Part shown: positions 1,494 to 60,165 of the stretch, in pieces
Layout of the letters: every line of letters begins with the position of its first letter
How positions within the stretch are numbered: position 1 is the stretch's first letter
Source: Cavia porcellus
Lineage: Eukaryota > Chordata > Mammalia > Rodentia > Caviidae
Direction: 5' to 3'
DNA length: 64,000 nt
Assembly: GCF_034190915.1 (NCBI RefSeq)
Contig: NW_026947484.1
Location: forward strand, 182,894,982 to 182,958,981
The notes under the pieces: generated by a model
The model's input: only the letters and a program-made list of their open reading frames with translations
Told to the model about the DNA's origin: nothing
The model's database searches: none
Program-made: the position numbers and the translations under genes

Positions 1494-1509
1494 GAGAATT
1501 AATTCAACC
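1494..1509. repeat. Left target-site duplication of HAL1 copy 1
   Basis: GAGAATTAATTCAACC is repeated exactly at 4671-4686 on the far side of the element. A 16-bp direct repeat is typical of L1 endonuclease-primed insertion. Confidence 0.93.
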
Positions 1510-2245
1510 GACTTCCGGGAGAACATGGCAGACAGATAACAGCAACTACCGGAGGCTCTCTGAAAGACTCGGCTCAGAAGCCAGGAATGGTGCGGACTAA
1601 GGAGACATAAGCAGGTGGAGATATGCTCTGCTGACTCAGGAACGAACTGGGCTGAGAGAAACCAACTTGGAATGCAGTCCTGGTGCTAAAACATGAAGAG
1701 AAAAGCCTCGGTGTGGAGGCTGGACCCCGCGCCATTGTAAGCCGCGATTTGGGTTTCCCATCGCGCGGCGGCTGGCTGCCTCTACAGTGGCTCGGCAAGG
1801 AGAGAGACACGCAGAAGCTCTGAGAACGGCAATCTGCGAACCGCAGGGAGGCGTGCACTGACTTGTGGTGAGGTGAGTGAGAGAAGCTGACACTCTACCA
1901 CAGTTTGACTCCAGCAGAGGACTTTCTGGGCCCGGGCAGTCCTGCGGGAGCAGGGCGCGGTGGCGACTCCAGCCACACATCCCCCTCTCGGGCGGGATTG
2001 GTGAAAAGTGCCTGGCCTGCGTGACGCTGCCGGCGGACCTGGTAGGCTGTCCCAACCCAGATTCCAGAGCCTGACGGTGGCCGGGAGGGGAGACGCGTAG
2101 GCTGCCTGGTCTGTAACTCCCTGGTGCGCAGCGGTGAGCGGGAACACCTAACTGGTGCAATTCGATCAGGCTGTGGCTGACTGGGAGAGAAGCTGGGCCT
2201 CTTATATAAGCTTGCATATATAAGGAACAGAGAAGAAGAGGCAGC
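1510..2245 (+). promoter_or_regulatory. HAL1 copy 1 5' UTR / internal promoter region
   Basis: This is a GC- and CpG-rich leader of 736 bp ahead of ORF1, as in full-length L1 elements, where the 5' UTR carries the internal polymerase II promoter. The segment about 1980-2045 aligns by eye with 12350-12410 in copy 2, where most CpGs have decayed. Two TATATAAG-like motifs lie at 2203-2210 and 2216-2223, just before the ORF1 start. Promoter activity is inferred from position and family. Confidence 0.6.
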
Positions 2246-3298
2246 ATGGGAAAAGGCAGCAACAAGAAGGGCTCCTCGGCCCCCAATTCTGAGAAACAGG
2301 CAATAGCAGACACCACACCAATATACATAAGGCACCATATAGAGAGCCTCATAGACCAATTCAGGAATGAAGTTATCAACGACCTGAAGCTAGAAGTAGG
2401 CAGAATAGTTAGAGAAATGCTAAGTACCACCCAAGAAAAAACAGGTGGTGGAATGGAAGAACAGAAAAAAAGGGGAGAATTGTTTGATGGAGAAAACAGA
2501 GAAAGCATAGAATACGTGAAGCAGGTTCAAAGGGACTACCAAGATACTAAGAAGTCTATAGAAGACTGGCATAACAGCTTGAAAGAAACTAAGGACAGAC
2601 TATCTGAACTGGAGGGCAGACTTGTAATATGGGAGAATGAAATGAAAAACTTCTTAAAAATAACAAAGAAACAAACAGCAATAATACAAAGACAAGAAGA
2701 TGATAAGAGGATCCATAACTTAAGGATTAAGAACATAAAAGAAGAAGTAGGGACACAAACAAGTGAACTACAAAAGCTACTCACAGAAATAATCCAGGAG
2801 AATTTTCCTAATTTAGCAAAAGGTAAAGATACTCAGATGTATGAGGCATACAGGACCCCAGCTACCTACAACCCAAACAGAGCAACACCCAGGCATATAA
2901 TAATAAAAATTCCAGAAATTCAATACAAGAACAGAATATTAAAAGCTGTAAGAGACAAGAAACAGACCACTTACAAGGGAACACCCATCAGAATTACAGC
3001 AGATTTCTCTGCACAAACCATCAAATCACGAAGAGCGTGGGGGGAAATAATTCAAGCTTTGAAAGATAATAATCTCCAGCCAAGATTGAGATATCCTGCA
3101 CAACTGTCCCTGGAAATTGATGGAAAAACAAGGTGCTTCCAGGATAAAGAGGAACTGGGGGAATTTGCAACCACCAATTCAACTCTAAAGAGAGTATTGC
3201 AGGATATTCTAAAAAAAGAAAAATACAAAGAACCCAGAAATAGTGGCGGGGAGGCCACAACGAATGGAGCAGAGAACAAAATGAAGAAGACAAACTGA
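2246..3298 (+). CDS. L1/HAL1 ORF1 protein (RNA-binding chaperone), intact
   Basis: ORF1p is a trimeric nucleic-acid chaperone that coats L1 RNA in a cytoplasmic particle and is needed for retrotransposition. The frame is open for 350 codons, close to the usual mammalian ORF1p length. The first ATG has a strong context (A at -3, G at +4). Visible regions: a charged N-terminal segment (residues 1-80), a heptad-like coiled coil (about 85-155), an RRM-type domain opening at IHNLRIKNI (157-165) and closing at RHIIIKI (216-222) plus the ILKAVR segment, and the C-terminal domain from YKGTPIRITADFS (243-255) through SRRAW to about 310. The tail (320-350) is basic. A homologous but broken frame is in copy 2 at 12640-13732. 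No ORF2 follows. This is a transposon gene and not a host gene; whether it is expressed cannot be seen. Confidence 0.9.
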   Translation: MGKGSNKKGSSAPNSEKQAIADTTPIYIRHHIESLIDQFRNEVINDLKLEVGRIVREMLSTTQEKTGGGMEEQKKRGELFDGENRESIEYVKQVQRDYQDTKKSIEDWHNSLKETKDRLSELEGRLVIWENEMKNFLKITKKQTAIIQRQEDDKRIHNLRIKNIKEEVGTQTSELQKLLTEIIQENFPNLAKGKDTQMYEAYRTPATYNPNRATPRHIIIKIPEIQYKNRILKAVRDKKQTTYKGTPIRITADFSAQTIKSRRAWGEIIQALKDNNLQPRLRYPAQLSLEIDGKTRCFQDKEELGEFATTNSTLKRVLQDILKKEKYKEPRNSGGEATTNGAENKMKKTN

Positions 3299-4670
3299 CA
3301 GCTACTGACAGAAAAAGAGCTCAACAGAAATGAGGCAGAGAAGATTGGATGATAGGAACAGCTATTTTGGAGAAAATGACATCCTAATAGGTAATACTGA
3401 TTTAGTATCATCTTGTTTTGAAGTCTCATCTAGCTTTTGTCCTTCTGTCTCCAATGGTCTAAATAGGCTGTATCTTATTGGATTTTATTATGTACGATAG
3501 TATAAGCAAAAACCTTTTAAAGACAAGGAGATTATACAGAAACCATTGTTCATTTTCTGTTAGTCGATTCTAAATACTCTGTAATGCTGTCATTCTCTTG
3601 AATGGTTTTACATTGTTTTGATATACTTAATGCTACAGTATATGAAGTTGTACTCAAGGATTTCAAAGAAAGAGACAATATGGTAACTACTTTTAGGTTA
3701 GGATTATCTGGTGGTGAAACACTATTCTGCTTAAATGGTTATGTTTTGATCTGCCCTGTTTCGCTGTTATGCCCTCTTTTATCTCAATCTCCACTCCATT
3801 ATTTACTTTTTTATCTTTATCCTTTTAATTAAAGGAAAAAAATAGCAGGATATATTATAGTAACCCACTTTGACTTTTCAGTACCTTGATTTAAAGCCCT
3901 GTATTACTCTCACCATCTGGTTTTTAACTGATGTTCCCCTATTCTGTTTTGTTGGATAGTATCAGGTTCGAAAGTTTAGGCATCAGCTGTAAAGATAATG
4001 AGACTCATTATGACGCCCATTCTTGTTGACTTTTATCTACTTTTGAAGACCTACAATGTCTCCAATGTTTTGGTTTTGTCGGTTTTATTCTTTATTGTTT
4101 TGTTCAATTGTATTATAACTAACGATATAGGCAATTCTATTAGAGATAGCGGGAGGCATTATGGTAACCATTGTTGATCACCTTGTATTATGTTTTTATA
4201 TTATCTATTATGTCCACCCTTTTGACTTGACCGATTCTGTTCTGTTATGTCACATTTGGTTTTACTCTCTTCCAAAAAAGTAATAAGAACCGTGGGAGCA
4301 ATGAAACCCAAAATGTGTAATAGTCATGGTACAAAAGAGAGGAAAAGAAAGTGCTCCAAACTATATAACTGCATGTATATTTAAGTGTATAAGATAGAAA
4401 ATGATATCACAGAGTTTTATTGGATCAATGAACAGAACTGTTTGCAGTATCATTGATGGAATGTCCACTTTACAAGCTTTAATTTTGTGACGAACAATTA
4501 TTTCTAAGATGACAATATGTAATCCATTAACTAGTGATTTCCTACTGTTCATTTTTTTTTCTGTAAATCTGTATAACTTGTACCCTTTCCCTGATTTTTT
4601 TTTCTTTTCTCCTTAAATAAAATTTTTAAAAAATTACTTAAAAAAAAATAAAAAAAAATTTTAAAAAAAA
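3299..4670 (+). other. HAL1 copy 1 3' UTR and A-rich tail
   Basis: This is a 1372-bp non-coding tail with two parts. The first part (about 3349-3835) matches the 3' UTR of the minus-strand L1 fragment at 48921-49816 and ends in a pyrimidine-rich stretch plus ATTAAA, like an L1 3' end. The second part (about 3840-4670) matches the ends of copy 2 and copy 3, with its own pyrimidine-rich run and AAATAAA. Weakly repeated motifs suggest both derive from related L1 3' UTR units. Confidence 0.65.
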
Positions 4671-4686
4671 GAGAATTAATTCAACC
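4671..4686. repeat. Right target-site duplication of HAL1 copy 1
   Basis: Identical to 1494-1509. Confidence 0.93.
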
Positions 4687-27451: not shown

Positions 27452-27560
27452 TGAGGGACTGGGTTTTTAGCTCAGCTGCATAAGCACCTGCCTTGCAAGC
27501 AGTCAGTCATGAGTTCAATCCCTGGTACCGACAAAAAAAAAAAAAAAAAAAAAAAATGTA
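27452..27560 (+). repeat. ID SINE
   Basis: tRNA-derived body with TTTAGCTCAGCTGCATAAGC (A-box region), GAGTTCAATCC (B-box region), GGTACC and a long A tail. Confidence 0.85.
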
Positions 27561-40534: not shown

Positions 40535-41020
40535 AGTGTCTCTTGTGTTGCTATAACTGAATTACCACAGACTGAGTAACTTATAGAGAGTAAAGATTTA
40601 TTTGGCTCGTAATTCAGAAGGCTAGGTGAGCAAGAGAAGGAGGCAGCAGTTGTAAGTCCCTTCTTGCTAATGAAAACTCTTTGCGAGTCCCAAGGAGACA
40701 CAGGATATCACATGACAAGTCTTACTGAGAGCCCTAACTCAGGTGTCTCCTCATAAAGCCTGAGGAGTGGGGCCACACCCTTATGACTTCATTTAACCTC
40801 AGTTACTTCCAAAAAATTCCATCCACGAAACCACAGGTAGATTAAGTTTCTACCTCCTAATACTTCACAAAGGAGATTAAGTCAGGGCTGGGGATTTAGC
40901 TCAGTGGCATAAGCGCCTGCCCGGCAAGCTTGAGGTCGTGAGTTTGATCCCTGGTACCAAAAAAAAAGGAGATTAAGTCAGTATGAATTCTATTGAGAGC
41001 TTTTAAACCTTAGCACTTGA
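40535..41020 (-). mobile_element. MLT1-like LTR, reverse orientation, hit by an ID
   Basis: 'gtgttgctataactgaattaccacagactg', 'gatttatttggctcgtaattcag' and 'ctacctcctaatacttc' follow reverse MaLR order. The ID at 40886-40964 interrupts it near the end. Confidence 0.6.
40886..40964 (+). repeat. ID SINE, intact, with 17-bp duplication
   Basis: GGCTGGGGATTTAGCTCAG start, tRNA-like body, GGTACC and a short A tail. AAAGGAGATTAAGTCAG at 40869-40885 and 40965-40981 is identical on both sides. Confidence 0.93.
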
Positions 41021-53103: not shown

Positions 53104-53109
53104 CATACC
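53104..53109. repeat. Provirus target-site duplication, left
   Basis: CATACC, repeated at 59829-59834. Six bases is the size made by betaretroviral integrases. Confidence 0.95.
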
Positions 53110-53592
53110 TGTCGATGTCCGCTCCCGGCCGGCAGGAAGGACACACGACAAAATCTGGTAGTGGACAACCTTTTCTTTTTATTTTCCTTCTCCGTACAGC
53201 CTGCCCTGGGTTCTCCCAGCTGAAGCCTCCTCTGGTCCGCTCCCCGCGGCTCCTTTTGTGCTTCAGTCTGCCCCAAAGCCTCTACCGGTCCGCTCTCCGC
53301 GGCTCCTTTTGGGCTTTTACTTCTGGGCTTCTACCTGGCTTCTTCTTCCGCCCAGGGGTGGCACCGGTATATATACGGGTACAGTGTCCAATCATGTTAA
53401 AGTAAGCAAGGCAAGCTGATTGGCTAACATCATCAGTTGCCAGGCAGACTATATTGTTGAGCGGGTTGTTTACGCGGTAAGCAGGAAACTAACATATTCG
53501 ATGGGAGGGGTAATCTACCTCAGGCTTTGCTCTTTACCACAGGCCGCACGTCCGCCGCGCAAGGCGAGCTATCACAGACGCGGCTCCCAACA
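53110..53592 (-). repeat. 3' LTR of the provirus
   Basis: 483 bp, TG...CA ends, same length as its partner. Read on the minus strand it has a CCAAT box (ATTGG on the plus strand at 53419-53423), a TATA element (about 53366-53378) and AATAAA (complement at 53178-53183), in U3-to-R order. It differs from the 5' LTR at 53153 (A here, G at 59389). Confidence 0.95.
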
Positions 53593-53608
53593 TCTCCCCC
53601 TATTTTAT
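53593..53608 (-). promoter_or_regulatory. Polypurine tract
   Basis: The minus strand reads ATAAAATAGGGGGAGA directly before the 3' LTR. This is the usual primer site for plus-strand DNA synthesis. Confidence 0.85.
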
Positions 53609-54096
53609 TTTTTATGAATGTGCGCATCGTAGCCCTTCCTGGACTGGGTGCAGAGGCTTATGCCCTATGTGTAGGTCCACCGTAGGTCCTTGGCTTAGAC
53701 CCTGGTTGGCCATGCCATGGTCTGCCAAGGCCCTGAGGCCCTCGTCCTTTTTCTAGGGCCAGGCACAAACTGGACGGAACCTGGATGCACACAAGCTTGC
53801 ACTCATTTCCTCTCCGTAAAGAAATCCCCTCGGAGAGAAATTTAGACCTGGGCAGCATCTAACAGTCCAGCGGCTTACGTGCAGGATGGGGTAGGGCCTG
53901 GCTTAGGTCGAGTCGTGCTGGGGAGGCACGCTCTTACCCGTCATTGACTCACCTACCCTGCTGTGTATTGTCACCTTATGGAGGAGAATGAGGGATGCCC
54001 GCCATATCTAGACTCGGTCGTGGGCCAATTGAGCAAGCCATGCATATGCCTGAGGATCTTCTTGTCCATTTCGGGCTACCGCTATTTCTATTCATC
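53609..54096 (-). other. Non-coding segment between pol and the polypurine tract
   Basis: Nearly 500 bases where env would lie. I see no signal peptide, fusion motif or transmembrane frame; the longest minus-strand frame (53658-53858, 66 codons) matches nothing I know. env was lost from the lineage, not merely mutated here. Confidence 0.75.
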
Positions 54097-56712
54097 TTAT
54101 TGGTTGGTCTGTGATGGATCTCCAGTAGGGCAGGTCTGATCTTCAGTCGAGGGCTTTGTTGCCCGTGTCAGTCTCTCCGGTATCCACAGTGGTTCTCGTC
54201 CCGGTTCCTGTGGGAAAACACAAACCGCGCCTCGGTTCCAGCTGACCACTGGATCCGGGCCCATCCATTGTCCTGTCAGGACATCTTTCCACTTCACCCA
54301 CCCTTTATGGTTGGGGGAAGGGTTGCAGTGCTCCACAGCTGGGGAGCGATTATCATTATTTAAATTTAAAAAATTGTGTGTGAATAGTGCCATGGATAAT
54401 CGTGCCTTTGGGGCCAGGCCTTGGCCTACTCCCCCTTTTTGTTTTTGTAAAATTTCTTTGAGGCTTCTATGAGCCCTCTCAATGATTCCTTGACCTTGGG
54501 GATTGTATGGGATACCATGTTTTAATTGAACCTCCATCATTTTGCAGAACTCATTGAAGGCTTTGCCTATATAGGCTGGTCCATTATCAGTTTTTAATAT
54601 TTTTGGTTTGCCCCATGCGGCCCAAGCTGCCAGGCAATGATTGATCACATTAGACACTTTTTCACCTGTTTCTGCTGTTGCGAATATGACGTGAGAACAG
54701 GTGTCTGTGGAAACATGAACATATTTAAGAGTCCCAAACTCCTGTATATGTGTGATGTCCATCTGCCAAACATCACCAGGGATCAAACCTCGAGGGTTTA
54801 CTCCCATCGGTATGGCAGGTTTGTATGTGGCACAGGAGTCACATAGTCGCACGATATCTCGTGCATCTGCTCTAGAAACATGGAAATGGTTTGCTAGTGT
54901 CCTGGCATTAACATGAAATTTATCATGGAAGGCACGGGCTCGCTCGATTGGTGTTAGTAAGGTAAAAATCCATAACGGGCGAGTGGCAGTGTCAGCAGCC
55001 GCATTCCCCTGTGCCATGGGCCCCGGCAGGGATGTATGTGCTCTTATGTGGGTGGTGAAGACCTTATGGTGTCTGTTCTGAAGCAATGTCTGGATAGACA
55101 GGAACAGTCCAGCCACTGTGGAAGTGGATCTAATTAAACTGGCAGTCTCAAGCACTTGCATAGCATTGACCACATACCTAGAATCGGAGACAATGTTAAT
55201 GGCTTCTGAGAACCGTTCAAGAATCATTTTAACGATCTGCAGTTCTACCACCTGAGGCTGATCTGGTTTAAATTGTATGGTAACCGGGGGCTTGCCTAGG
55301 ATCACATAGGCGCCTATCCCCGTCTTGGAGCCATCTGTGTATATTGTAGTTGCTAGGACTAATGGCTCAGAGGCAGTAACCTTTGGAAAAATTATAGGGT
55401 GCTGAGTGACAAATGACAAGATAGGGTCTTTAGGGTATTGATTGTTTATATCCCCATGGAAAACACATCTCAGAATGGCCCAGGTATCTATGCAGGCAGC
55501 CAGGGTCTTGATCTGGCTGGCGGTATAGGGTACTCGGATGGCTTGTGGTCCTGAGCCAAAATGTTGGACAGCTCTATCATGCGCTTCAAGGGCCAATGAA
55601 GCGACTGCCTCCGGGTAATGCTCTATGACTTTTGCAGGTGAGACCTTAGGGTGTATCCACAGTAGTGGTCCTTTCTGCCAAATCACCGCTGTAGGCTGTA
55701 GACTAGTCTGTAGCAAACAGACATCAAAGGGTCGCCCTGGTTCAATTCTGTGTAAGGTAGCCCCACCTAAGGCTTTTTCCACTCTCTGTAAGGCAGCTCT
55801 TGCCTCAGGAGTGAGCCTCCTGTGGGAGGCTATATCTGGGTCTCCCTTCAGAAGGTCGAACAGGGGTTTGAGATCTGAATTTGGTATATGTAAATATGGC
55901 CTAATCCAATTAATGTCTCCCAATAGCCTTTGCATGTCATTTAGGGTCCTAACGCCATCCATCCTAATGGTGACCTTCTGCGGAGAGACTAGCATAGGGG
56001 AGATTCTCGCGCCTAAGTAGGTCACCATTTCTCCTCCCTGAATCTTGTCGGGGGCAACATGCAGATTAGCTTGTCTCAGGGCCTCGACCAACTGGCTGAG
56101 CATATTATTTAGCATGTCTGGGTCCCTGCCGCTGAGCAAAAGGTCGTCCATGTAATGCATACATCTTATCTTGGGAAAGGATTTTCGTAGGGGGGCCAGT
56201 AGGGAATCAAGGTAAATCTGACACATAGTGGGACTGTTGGCCATACCTTGGGGCAACGTTACCCACTCGTATCTGAGATCAGGGCTTTCTTGGTTAATGG
56301 TGGGCAAAGTAAAGGCGAACCTATGAGTGTCCTCTGGGTGCAGGGGAATTGAGAAGAAACAGTCTCTAAGGTCTATAACATAAACTGGCCAGGACTGAGG
56401 GATGGCTGAGAGAGCTGGCAGCCCCCTCTGGACCGCCCCCAGGGGCTGCATCTGCGCGTTGACCGCCCTTAGATCATGGAGCAGCCTCCACTTGCCAGAC
56501 TTTTTCTTAATTATAAAAATGGGGGTGTTCCATGGGGAGGTTGACGGCTTAATATGTCCTAATCTAAGTTGTGTACTGACTATTTCTGACAAGGCTAATA
56601 GCTTCTCCTTAGGCAGGGGCCACTGAGGTACCCAAACCGGATCATTTGATTTCCAGGTGATTTTGATCGAAGTGGGTAGGAGAGCTTCTTCAGCGGCCCC
56701 TAAGAAAAACCC
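54097..56712 (-). CDS. pol: Pol: reverse transcriptase, RNase H, integrase
   Basis: This frame copies RNA to DNA and integrates it. It is entered by a -1 shift from pro at 56706-56712 and stays open to TAA at 54097-54099, about 870 codons. Counting from a TTG at 56592: the RT palm has an aspartate in VIDLRD (74) and YMDD (147-150). RNase H has D420 (YTDGS), E450, D470 (SDSRY) and D534. Integrase has an N-terminal zinc site (H556/H560, C584/C587) and the DDE triad D612, D669 (KTDNG) and E705. All expected catalytic residues are present and there is no internal stop. The frame has no ATG near the start of homology, which fits expression only as Gag-Pro-Pol. Whether the enzymes work is not shown. 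Confidence 0.93.
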   Translation of the reverse strand, partial: GFFLGAAEEALLPTSIKITWKSNDPVWVPQWPLPKEKLLALSEIVSTQLRLGHIKPSTSPWNTPIFIIKKKSGKWRLLHDLRAVNAQMQPLGAVQRGLPALSAIPQSWPVYVIDLRDCFFSIPLHPEDTHRFAFTLPTINQESPDLRYEWVTLPQGMANSPTMCQIYLDSLLAPLRKSFPKIRCMHYMDDLLLSGRDPDMLNNMLSQLVEALRQANLHVAPDKIQGGEMVTYLGARISPMLVSPQKVTIRMDGVRTLNDMQRLLGDINWIRPYLHIPNSDLKPLFDLLKGDPDIASHRRLTPEARAALQRVEKALGGATLHRIEPGRPFDVCLLQTSLQPTAVIWQKGPLLWIHPKVSPAKVIEHYPEAVASLALEAHDRAVQHFGSGPQAIRVPYTASQIKTLAACIDTWAILRCVFHGDINNQYPKDPILSFVTQHPIIFPKVTASEPLVLATTIYTDGSKTGIGAYVILGKPPVTIQFKPDQPQVVELQIVKMILERFSEAINIVSDSRYVVNAMQVLETASLIRSTSTVAGLFLSIQTLLQNRHHKVFTTHIRAHTSLPGPMAQGNAAADTATRPLWIFTLLTPIERARAFHDKFHVNARTLANHFHVSRADARDIVRLCDSCATYKPAIPMGVNPRGLIPGDVWQMDITHIQEFGTLKYVHVSTDTCSHVIFATAETGEKVSNVINHCLAAWAAWGKPKILKTDNGPAYIGKAFNEFCKMMEVQLKHGIPYNPQGQGIIERAHRSLKEILQKQKGGVGQGLAPKARLSMALFTHNFLNLNNDNRSPAVEHCNPSPNHKGWVKWKDVLTGQWMGPDPVVSWNRGAVCVFPQEPGREPLWIPERLTRATKPSTEDQTCPTGDPSQTNQ

Positions 56713-57605
56713 AATCCTTGCCTACCTTTTTTGTTTTCTACTGGTATTGGGGATGTCCGACCCTGCAGGGCATTGCCCAAGCCTTTGCCGGGGGTATATC
56801 CCTGGTTCCTGAGTATATCCTTAGCCTGGGGGGAGCAGTTTGACGTAAGCGTGACATCCATCTGAGTGAGGATGTCCCTTCCCCATAGAGACACTGGCAA
56901 CTGCAACACAAACGGTTGGAAATGGCCCTGATGACCCTCCTCATCGCACCAGAGCAGGGTTGAAGCACTAACCTGAGGAGCTGACACCATCCCCAGGCCC
57001 TGCAGCGTGTTATCTGCAGTGTTGGTGGGCCAGTTGGAAGGCCAATCCTTTCTGGAGATAATGGAACGGTCAGCTCCTGTGTCTAGGAGCCCTGTTATAT
57101 TCTTGCCATTGACCTTAAGTGAGAGCATGGGCCTTTTACCAAGTGTCATATGGAGTCCCTCAAAGACTTCCCCTGAGGAACCGAAACCTTGACTTTCTCT
57201 AATTTTCTGCTTTGAGGGAAATCTCTTGTGGAGACTGGGGAGCAGCAAGAGCTGCGCTATCTTGTCTCCTTTATTGATTACCATAGTACCCACAAGAGAT
57301 TGAACCATAATTTTAATATGTCCTGTGTAGTCTGAGTCTATGACCCCTGGGACTACTGTGAGACCCCGAAGGGCCGTGGAGGATCTCCCGATCACCAGAC
57401 CCACGAAATTTTCGGGTAACGGTCCCTTAAAGGTGGTTTCAACCACTTGAACACCCATATCAGGCACTAATATAAGTCCTGAGGCGACACTGAGGTCCAC
57501 ACCTGCTGACCCAGGGGTGGCCCTTGTTGAAGGCTGCCACCCTGAGCTGTCCTGTCTCTGGGGCGGGGGCCCGCCTGTGAAGGGGGCCCCCTCTGGCCGT
57601 TTTTT
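56700..57605 (-). CDS. pro: Pro: dUTPase fused to aspartic protease with G-patch
   Basis: The frame is entered by a -1 shift from gag at 57599-57605 and ends at TAG 56700-56702; a GTG at 57500 is not a likely start. First comes a trimeric dUTPase, which limits uracil incorporation: the AGVDLS opening, GRSS, GVIDSDYTG, GDKIAQLLL and a C-terminal GFGSSG motif are all visible, so the five conserved dUTPase motifs appear present. The protease follows, with catalytic LLDTGADRS and a WGRDIL helix near its end. The tail has a glycine-rich G-patch (GYTPGKGLG, QGLGF). This order, dUTPase then protease then G-patch, is the betaretroviral arrangement. Confidence 0.93.
   Translation of the reverse strand, partial: KKRPEGAPFTGGPPPQRQDSSGWQPSTRATPGSAGVDLSVASGLILVPDMGVQVVETTFKGPLPENFVGLVIGRSSTALRGLTVVPGVIDSDYTGHIKIMVQSLVGTMVINKGDKIAQLLLLPSLHKRFPSKQKIRESQGFGSSGEVFEGLHMTLGKRPMLSLKVNGKNITGLLDTGADRSIISRKDWPSNWPTNTADNTLQGLGMVSAPQVSASTLLWCDEEGHQGHFQPFVLQLPVSLWGRDILTQMDVTLTSNCSPQAKDILRNQGYTPGKGLGNALQGRTSPIPVENKKGRQGLGFS
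56706..56712 (-). promoter_or_regulatory. pro-pol -1 frameshift site
   Basis: The minus strand reads G GGT TTT in the pro frame, four codons before or at the end of pro (then TCT TAG). It fits X XXY YYZ, and pol is in the -1 frame exactly from here. A downstream RNA structure was not tested. Confidence 0.8.
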
Positions 57606-59146
57606 GGCTCTCTAGCATCTTGTCCACAAATACGGTTGCCCTGAGCATCAAAGACCGACCTACACTCCTCAGCTTTGTGTGATCCCTTTTTGCATCGCCC
57701 ACAAACATATGGTTCTTCATTCCTAGGGCGAGGCCTAGCATCTGCATTGTTTGGGCAATGACGTTTAATGTGTCCTGGCTCCCCGCAGGCAAAACACCCT
57801 TTAGCCTTACATTCCCCTTCTAACCCGCGAGGTCCCCTCTGCTGTACAGCCGCGGCCAGGAGAGCAGCCACTCCCGAGTTGGAGAGCGGCCCCCCTATCT
57901 CTCTGCATATCCTAATCCAGGCGTTGAGGTCCTTGTTCTTATGAGGAGCTATCGCTGCCTTGCACTCCTTTGTACATTGCTCAAAAATCAGCTGTCTTAC
58001 CAGCGGTTGAGCCACTCCCGGATCAGAAAATATCTTATCGGCAGCATCTTGCATTCGGGCCACAAAGTCAACAAATGGCTCTGTGGTACCCTGAATTATT
58101 TTTGAAAGACACAAGGAGGCTGTTCCGGCACCACTTACCTGTTTCCAGGCGCGGAGCCCTATGGCATTGATTTGTTCATAGACAGCGCCGGGGAACTGGG
58201 TCTGGTCATCAGCGTGCCGACCTTCTCCCATAAGCATTTCCTTGTTCCACCCCCGGTTTCCCCGATTGGCGTTTCTCTCAGCCTGCTCTGCAGAGAACTC
58301 TGCGTACCAGGCTCGCCAATCCAGGTAACTGCCCGAGGGCAGACACGCCTTTGCCAGCTGAATCCAGTCCGCGGGGGTGAGGGGCCCAGAAGACAGATTC
58401 TCCAGCATGGCAATGGTGTAAGGCGCAGTCGGCCCAAAGGTTGTAACTGCATTTTTAAGTTCTCTAATCTGCTTTATCTCAAAAGGCTCCCATACATTGC
58501 GTCCCTGGCCCATAGCTACTTGTACAGGAAATATCCCGTAGGGGCCACTATCTATCCCAGGTGGATGTACCTCATGAGACAAGCGTCCCCCCTGCCAAAG
58601 CCGCCTGTAAAAATACCGACCCGCCGGCGGCGGAGCATAAGACAGCGGCCGTGATTGGGCGGAAAATGGGGGCCCGTGCATCACTTCCTGTTCTGGCGAA
58701 AGGGGAGAGAGCTCCCAGGCGGCCGCCTCGTGGCGAGGAATCGCCTCCGGAAACGGCCCCCAAGGTGGGGCGGAAGGCTTCGCCTCCCTCTCGCGCCGGG
58801 GAGCGCTTAGGAGCTCTCTACTCCTCCGCAGACCAGGTTGAGCAGAGCGCAATTCGCGGGGCAACGCTGGAAAAGAACCCTGCGACTCCTTATTGAGCGA
58901 TTTAGGCTCCTGACAGCTGGTCTCTTTGGCCTCCTTGCCATTCAACTTTCCCTCGTCCTCGGAGTCAGACGACTCCGAGGCTAGAGCCCCGTCCTCCTCC
59001 TTAGCATCCTTGTTCCCCTTGACGGGCCCCTCTCGGGAGCTCCCTGACTGGGCCTGCTCAGATACCCTGCGTACTTTTGTAAGCTCTTGAGAGCTTTCTC
59101 CACAACCACCCTCGCTCTTAGTGTTGCTACCTAACATGTTTCCCAT
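57467..59146 (-). CDS. gag: Gag polyprotein
   Basis: Gag builds the particle and packages RNA. The frame is open for 559 codons; its ATG has a strong context (A at -3, G at +4). Residues 1-7 (MGNMLGS) suit N-myristoylation. Residues 8-125 are charged and low-complexity with an acidic serine patch (58-66), and 126-205 are proline-rich. I see no helical matrix domain. Capsid spans about 205-425, with the major homology region at 350-373 (IIQGTTEPF...). Nucleocapsid has two CCHC knuckles (451-464, 482-495). The length is short for a class II Gag, mainly at the N-terminal end. pro overlaps the last 139 bases in the -1 frame. No stop or frameshift is seen. Confidence 0.93.
   Translation of the reverse strand: MGNMLGSNTKSEGGCGESSQELTKVRRVSEQAQSGSSREGPVKGNKDAKEEDGALASESSDSEDEGKLNGKEAKETSCQEPKSLNKESQGSFPALPRELRSAQPGLRRSRELLSAPRREREAKPSAPPWGPFPEAIPRHEAAAWELSPLSPEQEVMHGPPFSAQSRPLSYAPPPAGRYFYRRLWQGGRLSHEVHPPGIDSGPYGIFPVQVAMGQGRNVWEPFEIKQIRELKNAVTTFGPTAPYTIAMLENLSSGPLTPADWIQLAKACLPSGSYLDWRAWYAEFSAEQAERNANRGNRGWNKEMLMGEGRHADDQTQFPGAVYEQINAIGLRAWKQVSGAGTASLCLSKIIQGTTEPFVDFVARMQDAADKIFSDPGVAQPLVRQLIFEQCTKECKAAIAPHKNKDLNAWIRICREIGGPLSNSGVAALLAAAVQQRGPRGLEGECKAKGCFACGEPGHIKRHCPNNADARPRPRNEEPYVCGRCKKGSHKAEECRSVFDAQGNRICGQDAREPKNGQRGPPSQAGPRPRDRTAQGGSLQQGPPLGQQVWTSVSPQDLY
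57599..57605 (-). promoter_or_regulatory. gag-pro -1 frameshift site
   Basis: The minus strand reads A AAA AAC in the gag frame (between P and G codons). It is the classic retroviral slippery heptamer, and the pro frame is open in -1 from here. Confidence 0.9.
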
Positions 59147-59345
59147 CTTTTAATATGTTACTCACCGCGTGAGGCCCAAGGAATCCGCCACTTACGCGTG
59201 AGCCTGAGGGGAGTCTAAAAGCCCTGTAGGTGCGCGCCACCCAGAGCCCAGGCTTATCCCCAACTCACCTGTCTCGCAGCTCTGTACTGGAGCGTTGTCC
59301 ACTTCCACGTCTCGGGGGTGATCAGTCCCCGGGCGGGCCTCCAAA
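59147..59345 (-). other. Proviral leader
   Basis: 199 bases between the 5' LTR and gag. It should hold the packaging signal; none can be defined by eye. Confidence 0.7.
59326..59343 (-). promoter_or_regulatory. Primer-binding site, primer tRNA uncertain
   Basis: Two bases after the 5' LTR the minus strand reads TGGAGGCCCGCCCGGGGA. It starts with TGG as expected. By eye it matches glycine (CCC) and proline sites about equally and only partly (13-14 of 18), and lysine only with a gap. Confidence 0.6.
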
Positions 59346-59828
59346 TGTCGATGTCCGCTCCCGGCCGGCAGGAAGGACACACGACAAAGTCTGGTAGTGG
59401 ACAACCTTTTCTTTTTATTTTCCTTCTCCGTACAGCCTGCCCTGGGTTCTCCCAGCTGAAGCCTCCTCTGGTCCGCTCCCCGCGGCTCCTTTTGTGCTTC
59501 AGTCTGCCCCAAAGCCTCTACCGGTCCGCTCTCCGCGGCTCCTTTTGGGCTTTTACTTCTGGGCTTCTACCTGGCTTCTTCTTCCGCCCAGGGGTGGCAC
59601 CGGTATATATACGGGTACAGTGTCCAATCATGTTAAAGTAAGCAAGGCAAGCTGATTGGCTAACATCATCAGTTGCCAGGCAGACTATATTGTTGAGCGG
59701 GTTGTTTACGCGGTAAGCAGGAAACTAACATATTCGATGGGAGGGGTAATCTACCTCAGGCTTTGCTCTTTACCACAGGCCGCACGTCCGCCGCGCAAGG
59801 CGAGCTATCACAGACGCGGCTCCCAACA
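59346..59828 (-). promoter_or_regulatory. 5' LTR of the provirus (promoter)
   Basis: 483 bp. CCAAT (complement at 59655-59659), TATA (about 59602-59614) and AATAAA (complement at 59414-59419) are in the order needed to drive minus-strand transcription of gag-pro-pol. A near-duplicated segment of about 34 bp, ending at the CCGCGG blocks, lies downstream of TATA (about 59465-59547). Confidence 0.93.
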
Positions 59829-59834
59829 CATACC
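59829..59834. repeat. Provirus target-site duplication, right
   Basis: CATACC, identical to 53104-53109. Confidence 0.95.
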
Positions 59835-60067
59835 CAAATTAAGATTGTCTTTTGAAAGATTAACCTGAGAAAGTTGTATGACAAACCTAATTCAGGGATG
59901 TTTTTCCAAAATATTTTCGAAGTTTTCTATTGGAATTTCATGGAGTCCAAGGCAGCAAGTGTCCACAACACTTGCCCAGTTGTACTCTCCAATTTGCATA
60001 CGAGGACATGGAGGCTCCATGAGCTCTGGAACACACAGAGATCAAACATCAAATTACAGACTAAAAG

Positions 60068-60165
60068 GGGCTGGGAACTTAGCTCAGCGGCATACACACC
60101 TGCCTTGCAAGCAGGCAGTTGTGAGTTCAATCCCCGGTACCGATGAAAAAAGAAAAAAAAAGTGT
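60068..60165 (+). repeat. ID SINE
   Basis: GGGGCTGGGAACTTAGCTCAG start, GAGTTCAATCCCCGGTACC and an A-rich tail. AAATTACAG on both sides (about 60050 and 60173) may be the duplication. Confidence 0.85.

What the first reader, a model, noticed from the sequence alone, without database searches (positions are those of the whole stretch)
53110..59828. Very young, coding-intact, env-less class II provirus
The two 483-bp LTRs show one difference by eye (53153 versus 59389), the 6-bp duplication CATACC is perfect, and gag, pro and pol have no stop or unexplained frameshift. All catalytic residues checked are present. One difference in 483 implies recent integration, so the site may be polymorphic in the species and the family may still be moving. 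The missing env fits an intracellular retrotransposon lifestyle.
Basis: partly seen in the sequence, partly recalled or inferred. Interest (0 to 1): 0.9.

Follow-up and report, generated by a model that had tools for sequence, protein, structure and literature searches.

The report
Matrix-less guinea pig retrotransposon
A likely recently inserted virus-like jumping gene, most likely from the guinea pig genome, keeps open reading frames for its copying genes but shows no envelope gene and no Gag matrix domain, a combination predicted to keep it inside the cell.

Summary
Window 53110-59828 is a complete class II provirus on the minus strand: 483-bp LTRs with one mismatch, a perfect 6-bp target duplication, open gag, pro (with dUTPase) and pol frames with canonical -1 slip sites, and no env detected. 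The host is most likely guinea pig (Gag 97% identical to a Cavia porcellus cluster of 25 sequences). Guinea pig IAP elements are already reported as a young 'megafamily', so a young env-less copy is not new in itself.

A nine-residue leader with a myristoylation motif runs straight into the linker. The window and six guinea pig clusters share this start; the nearest MA-bearing guinea pig relative, P0011, has a full MA. No MA remnant lies upstream, and AlphaFold2 shows no N-terminal fold, while P0011's MA is predicted confidently. Three other Gags (one from rat) lost MA differently, beginning with a hydrophobic segment. In HIV-1 a large MA deletion redirects assembly to the endoplasmic reticulum. 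I infer that MA loss helps make this family intracellular. Polymorphism, expression and particle location remain untested; the own-genome search did not complete.

The parts
53104..53109 (.). target-site duplication CATACC, left copy
53110..53592 (-). 3' LTR, 483 bp
53593..53613 (-). polypurine tract next to the 3' LTR
   Evidence: read from the sequence
53614..54096 (-). non-coding stretch between pol and the polypurine tract; no env similarity in the seven peptides tested, no Rfam match
54097..56721 (-). pol ORF (RT, RNase H, integrase), 874 aa, stop to stop
56700..57611 (-). pro ORF (dUTPase, protease, G-patch), stop to stop
56706..56712 (-). pro/pol slip site GGGTTTT
57599..57605 (-). gag/pro slip site AAAAAAC followed by a GC-rich hairpin
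57467..59146 (-). gag, 559 aa: leader, linker, CA, two zinc knuckles; no matrix domain
59120..59146 (-). first nine Gag codons, leader with a myristoylation motif standing where the matrix domain is expected
59147..59345 (-). 5' untranslated leader; no matrix remnant in any sense frame
59326..59343 (-). primer-binding site, tRNA not identified
59346..59828 (-). 5' LTR, 483 bp; TATATA at LTR positions 218-225, AATAAA at 410
59829..59834 (.). target-site duplication CATACC, right copy

Best explanation
This is a likely recent copy of an IAP-like class II LTR retrotransposon, most likely from the guinea pig, with open gag, pro and pol frames, no detected env and a Gag without a matrix domain, and it would likely assemble and copy itself inside the cell instead of budding out. 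Shown here: the anatomy of the copy, the absence of MA in this Gag and in six related guinea pig clusters, and a complete MA in other relatives. Inferred: LTR-driven RNA is translated into Gag, Gag-Pro and Gag-Pro-Pol by two -1 frameshifts; Gag keeps an N-terminal myristoylation motif but lacks the globular MA that steers Gag to the plasma membrane and takes up Env; particles therefore form on internal membranes (ER cisternae) or in the cytosol, reverse transcribe, and integrase puts the cDNA back into the same genome. MA could be lost because, once env was gone, its two main duties were no longer selected. Some other IAP-like Gags seem to have reached a matrix-free state by another route, beginning with a hydrophobic segment instead.
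For: Provirus anatomy. No Gag_p10 match at E<=1 in the window Gag, P0004 or P0005, against matches in P0006, P0008, P0009, P0011, P0012, P0046; a purpose-made MA profile agrees. Census of 99 Gags: 53 with MA, 46 without; the window and six Cavia clusters share the start MGNMLGS[N/G]TKSEGGC and match a myristoylation pattern, 7 of 7. No MA in the 5' leader. AlphaFold2: residues 1-203 mostly below pLDDT 50 in the window Gag; MA helices 10-90 of P0011 at 87-97. CA is more conserved than linker between the window and P0005, both MA-less (94% against 81%, p 4e-5). [quoted passage not shown] Env loss plus an altered Gag N-terminus is the described route of IAP, MusD and ERV-L (PMC3197615, passage).
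Against: Localisation, myristoylation, expression and mobility were not tested. In the tree of linker plus CA N-domain the MA-bearing P0011 falls among the MA-less rows (88/94), so a single loss is not proven, though it is not rejected (p-AU 0.149). Between the window and P0005 the NC part is only 75% identical (63 of 84), less than the linker; P0005 ends differently there. Of the six MA-less guinea pig clusters only P0004 and P0005 exceed 500 aa; P0010, P0217, P0220 and P0222 are shorter models (377, 303, 306, 264 aa), and P0010 diverges within CA. A PSAP motif, a late-budding signal (role recalled), is kept, which does not suit a purely intracellular life. Gene models favour open copies, which weakens the argument from constraint.
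Confidence: 0.65

Rival explanations
1. The MA-less subfamily is non-autonomous in practice: its RNA is mobilised in trans by proteins of matrix-bearing relatives, and MA loss is a passenger change without a role in location.
For: Matrix-bearing relatives exist in guinea pig (P0011, P0012, P0015, P0046, P0059, P0202). Young copies would still look intact.
Against: gag, pro and pol are all open here; CA is more constrained than linker between two MA-less lineages; the close MA-bearing relative P0011 is itself only a 386-aa model.
Confidence: 0.22
2. Gag acts as a full Gag after all: MA is supplied by an alternative upstream exon or start, so the short leader is only one isoform.
For: Three splice-donor-like GTRAGT sites lie in the 5' leader (59268, 59195, 59165).
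Against: No MA-like stretch in any sense frame of the leader (best 1.4 bits); the ATG has a favourable context and starts a myristoylation motif; no MA match elsewhere in this Gag.
Confidence: 0.05
3. The LTR identity is a product of conversion or of assembly collapse, and the insertion is much older.
For: LTR identity alone cannot exclude conversion, and no reads were available.
Against: The duplication is perfect, three frames are open, CpG observed/expected is 0.78 in the LTR against 0.20 in window 1-50000, and the flanks differ.
Confidence: 0.05

Closest known systems
Guinea pig IAP megafamily (Magiorkinis and colleagues 2012, not held; seen here only through passages of PMC4102558 and PMC3758190)
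   Same: Same host, IAP-like class II, young; megafamily ERVs are said to lack env (PMC4102558)
   Different: The passages seen do not describe its Gag; the missing matrix is the new point. One guinea pig IAP lineage is said to have acquired a gamma-type env (PMC3758190), unlike this copy
Murid IAP (mouse, hamster)
   Same: Env-less and in the same Pol branch of 22 rows (100/100); Pol 52-55% identical to named IAP Pols
   Different: Separate branch within that group; a rat IgE-binding-like Gag (P0198) and two unnamed Gags begin with a hydrophobic segment, the window with a polar leader; the primer site differs from the tRNA-Phe site recalled for mouse IAP
IAPE (IAP with envelope)
   Same: Described as progenitor of mouse IAP (PMC3197615, passage)
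   Different: Has env and buds; the window copy shows no env and no MA
MusD and MuERV-L
   Same: Env-less elements described as intracellular (PMC3197615; PMC6466679; PMC5930517; passages)
   Different: Other lineages; their exact Gag changes were not compared here
HIV-1 Gag with matrix residues 16-99 deleted
   Same: Short N-terminus kept, globular MA removed; a large MA deletion moves assembly to the ER (PMC2267008; PMC8703376; passages)
   Different: A laboratory lentivirus mutant; here a natural, inherited and multiplied state in another lineage

Membership tests
Class II (betaretrovirus-like) ERV | gag, pro with dUTPase, and pol in three frames joined by -1 slips; 6-bp duplication; Pol and CA similar to betaretroviruses | tested here: met
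IAP-like clade (broad sense) | Pol groups with IAP against simian retroviruses 1 and 4 | tested here: met
   26 of 121 Pols used: a branch of 22 rows at 100/100
Murid IAP (narrow sense) | Pol nested within mouse and hamster IAP | tested here: not met
   the named IAP rows lie in a branch of 8 rows (97/97), the window in one of 13 rows (95/93)
Murid IAP (narrow sense) | Hydrophobic ER signal at the Gag N-terminus (recalled) | tested here: not met
   best 19-residue mean hydropathy in the first 60 residues -0.72, against 2.45 to 2.93 in P0048, P0044, P0198
Murid IAP (narrow sense) | Particles in ER cisternae | not testable with these tools
   needs electron microscopy
Guinea pig IAP megafamily | Guinea pig host, low divergence, no env | tested here: inconclusive
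Active, polymorphic retrotransposon | Empty allele in other individuals, or new insertions | not testable with these tools
   no reads of other individuals; own-genome search unanswered

The most novel reading that the evidence does not exclude
The guinea pig IAP-like family is a natural delta-matrix retroelement: by losing MA while keeping a myristoylation signal it became intracellular by a route different from the hydrophobic N-terminus of other IAP-like Gags, showing that a matrix domain is dispensable for a full retroviral copying cycle once env is gone.
Probability: 0.5. Interest if true: 0.75.

Novelty: new variant of a known kind. Interest (0 to 1): 0.56.

Why it matters
How retroviruses turn into purely intracellular genomic parasites is described mostly for mouse IAP, MusD and ERV-L. 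A lineage in another rodent that dropped the matrix domain outright, and still multiplied with its other genes open, would make convergence testable: does losing MA, rather than gaining an ER signal, suffice to keep Gag inside? It is also a natural counterpart to HIV-1 matrix-deletion mutants, and a possible source of insertional variation in a laboratory animal.

Tried and rejected
Env relic: seven peptides of 27 to 66 residues from the sense frames of 53593-54096 gave no retroviral Pfam match (the only match was ANTAR at E 0.044, taken as chance); the other pieces of those frames and the antisense frames were not searched.

RNA export element in the 3' non-coding stretch: no Rfam family at its gathering score anywhere in the window; the whole stretch (z -0.76) and the hairpin at 53801-53860 (z -0.65) fold no better than many shuffles.

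Hidden MA upstream of the gag start: leader frames score at most 1.4 bits against the MA profile. Rejected.

Other copies: no LTR or internal match at E<=1e-3 elsewhere in the window; IMG/VR gave no relative of Gag.

A clean deletion scar: one alignment places the gap after MG, another fits the leader without a gap against the end of MA, so I say that MA is absent and a nine-residue leader stands in its place, not that a deletion has been mapped.

PPxY loss as a further sign of intracellular life: dropped. The window and P0004 have PLSY, but MA-less P0005 keeps PPSY and MA-bearing P0059 has PLSY.

Primer tRNA: the 18-nt site does not resemble the tRNA-Phe site recalled for mouse IAP; a threonine-type tRNA was a guess from memory and was not tested.

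Full report
The observation. The window holds a complete provirus on the minus strand. The 6-bp duplication CATACC is perfect (53104-53109, 59829-59834). LTR and internal pieces have no match at E<=1e-3 elsewhere in the window. With assumed rates of 2 to 4.5e-9 substitutions per site per year (my choice, recalled), one difference corresponds to about 0.2-0.5 million years, Poisson 95% range 0.006-2.9 million years. CpG observed/expected is 0.78 in the LTR, 0.36-0.73 in four internal pieces and 0.20 in window 1-50000, as a young insertion would show.

Coding capacity. gag (57467-59146, 559 aa), pro (ORF 56700-57611) and pol (54097-56721, 874 aa) are open. AAAAAAC and GGGTTTT lie in the overlaps in the right register. 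The gag/pro site is followed by a GC-rich hairpin more stable than most shuffles (z -2.44, 4 of 200 at least as good); the stretch at the pro/pol site is not (z 0.66, 144 of 200). Pfam finds CA, two zinc knuckles, dUTPase, protease, G-patch, RT, thumb, RNase H and the three integrase domains. Alignments to a solved retroviral polymerase (7sr6) and integrase (7usf) show the YMDD box, the RNase H acidic residues, the HH-CC zinc site and the D,D(35)E triad (residue roles recalled). dUTPase and protease line up with solved enzymes (2d4l, 3sqf). Between pol and the 3' LTR about 480 bases gave no retroviral Pfam match in the seven peptides tested.

Host and family. The best Gag hit, P0004, is named Cavia porcellus, is 97% identical (545 of 559) and stands for a cluster of 25 sequences. 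P0075, an unnamed Pol, is 99% identical over 74% of the query. In a Pol tree of 26 rows that I chose from the 121 at hand (446 matches, 120 listed), the window falls in a branch of 22 rows with mouse and hamster IAP (100/100), apart from simian retroviruses 1 and 4; within it the named IAPs lie in a branch of 8 (97/97) and the window in one of 13 (95/93). A 2014 paper names the IAP family of Cavia porcellus among megafamilies with mean divergence under 10% (PMC4102558, passages). A review reports that one guinea pig IAP lineage acquired a gamma-type env (PMC3758190, passages). So a young env-less guinea pig IAP-like copy is expected, not new. A 2011 table of young guinea pig repeat families lists ERV1 LTRs but no ERV2 LTR (PMC3183009, passage), which does not by itself fit a burst of this family.

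The missing matrix. The window Gag has no Gag_p10 (MA) match even at E<=1, nor have P0004 and P0005, while P0006, P0008, P0009, P0011, P0012 and P0046 have one; P0014, the last of the ten scanned, is an N-terminally shortened model. A purpose-made MA profile agrees. The leader MGNMLGSNT runs directly into KSEGGC, which in P0011 follows the end of MA. In a census of the 99 Gags gathered here, 53 have MA at 15 bits or more and 46 do not. Of the 46, seven (the window and the Cavia clusters P0004, P0005, P0010, P0217, P0220, P0222) carry this type of start; two (P0013, P0014) start with MG but inside the protein; three of 500 aa or more start otherwise (P0044, P0198, P0201); the other 34 are under 500 aa, many probably shortened models, and apart from P0048 I draw nothing from them. 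Four of the six Cavia clusters are themselves short models (264-377 aa). All seven match an N-myristoylation pattern (pattern recalled). AlphaFold2 gives low confidence for most of residues 1-203 of the window Gag, with two lone helices at 18-34 and 94-112, then a good CA that matches retroviral capsids. The same method on the paralogue P0011 gives MA helices between residues 10 and 90 with block confidences of 87-97, and P0011 matches solved matrix proteins by sequence (best 5hyb, E 1.3e-7), whereas in 27 PDB matches of the window Gag no best stretch begins before residue 192.

History. In a CA tree of 67 of 72 Gags (five rows with too little CA dropped: P0010, P0011, P0059, P0072, P0074) the window, P0004 and P0005 form one branch (99/85) inside a clade of MA-bearing rows plus the shortened P0007. 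On linker plus CA N-domain, with 13 of 14 rows (P0007 dropped), MA-bearing P0011 falls between P0005 and the other MA-less rows (88/94). Holding the MA-less rows together is not rejected (p-AU 0.149), and similarity along P0011 shifts from slightly P0005-like to window-like. One loss followed by recombination is the simplest reading, not a proof. The window and P0005 share the leader and differ at 19% of linker sites but 6% of CA sites (p 4e-5), so CA was probably constrained after the loss. Against this, their NC part is only 75% identical (63 of 84), and P0005 ends differently there; gene models also favour open copies. The window and P0010 agree at only 61% of CA sites because P0010 departs from the family within CA.

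Mechanism. [quoted passage not shown] The window family fits this with a different alteration. Three MA-less Gags, P0044, P0048 (both unnamed) and P0198 (rat), begin with a hydrophobic segment (mean hydropathy 2.64, 2.45, 2.93), whereas the guinea pig leader is polar (-0.72). That two routes led to matrix-free Gag is an inference from these sequences. A PSAP motif is kept, which would rather suit budding. Localisation, myristoylation and mobility are untested.

Limits. The own-genome search did not complete in eight tries, so copy number, polymorphism and LTR divergence across the family remain open. My literature statement rests on ten searches: no listing or passage that I saw described a matrix-less guinea pig Gag, but three key papers (Ribet 2007 and 2008, Magiorkinis 2012) were not held and may touch on it.

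Noticed in passing
window 1494-4686, + strand: Apparent HAL1 (half-L1) insertion: one L1-ORF1-type ORF (2246-3298, 350 aa, Pfam Transposase_22), no ORF2-sized frame (longest + strand stop-free run 76 codons in 3299-4671), A-rich end, perfect 16-bp duplication GAGAATTAATTCAACC at 1494-1509 and 4671-4686. HAL1 families are listed among young guinea pig repeats in PMC3183009 (passage).
   Followed up: partly
window 59160-59268, - strand: Three splice-donor-like GTRAGT sites (59268, 59195, 59165) in the 5' leader of an element without a detected env.
   Followed up: no
window 59326-59343, - strand: The primer-binding site starts TGGAGGCCCG; its tRNA was not identified, and it differs from the tRNA-Phe site recalled for mouse IAP.
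   Followed up: no
P0044, P0048, P0198 (protein records): IAP-like Gags without MA that begin with a strongly hydrophobic segment; P0198 is named from rat, the other two are unnamed.
   Followed up: partly
window about 60067-60165, + strand: An ID-like SINE (name recalled) just outside the provirus, with similar stretches at 27454-27556 and 40885-40970; fits a rodent host.
   Followed up: no
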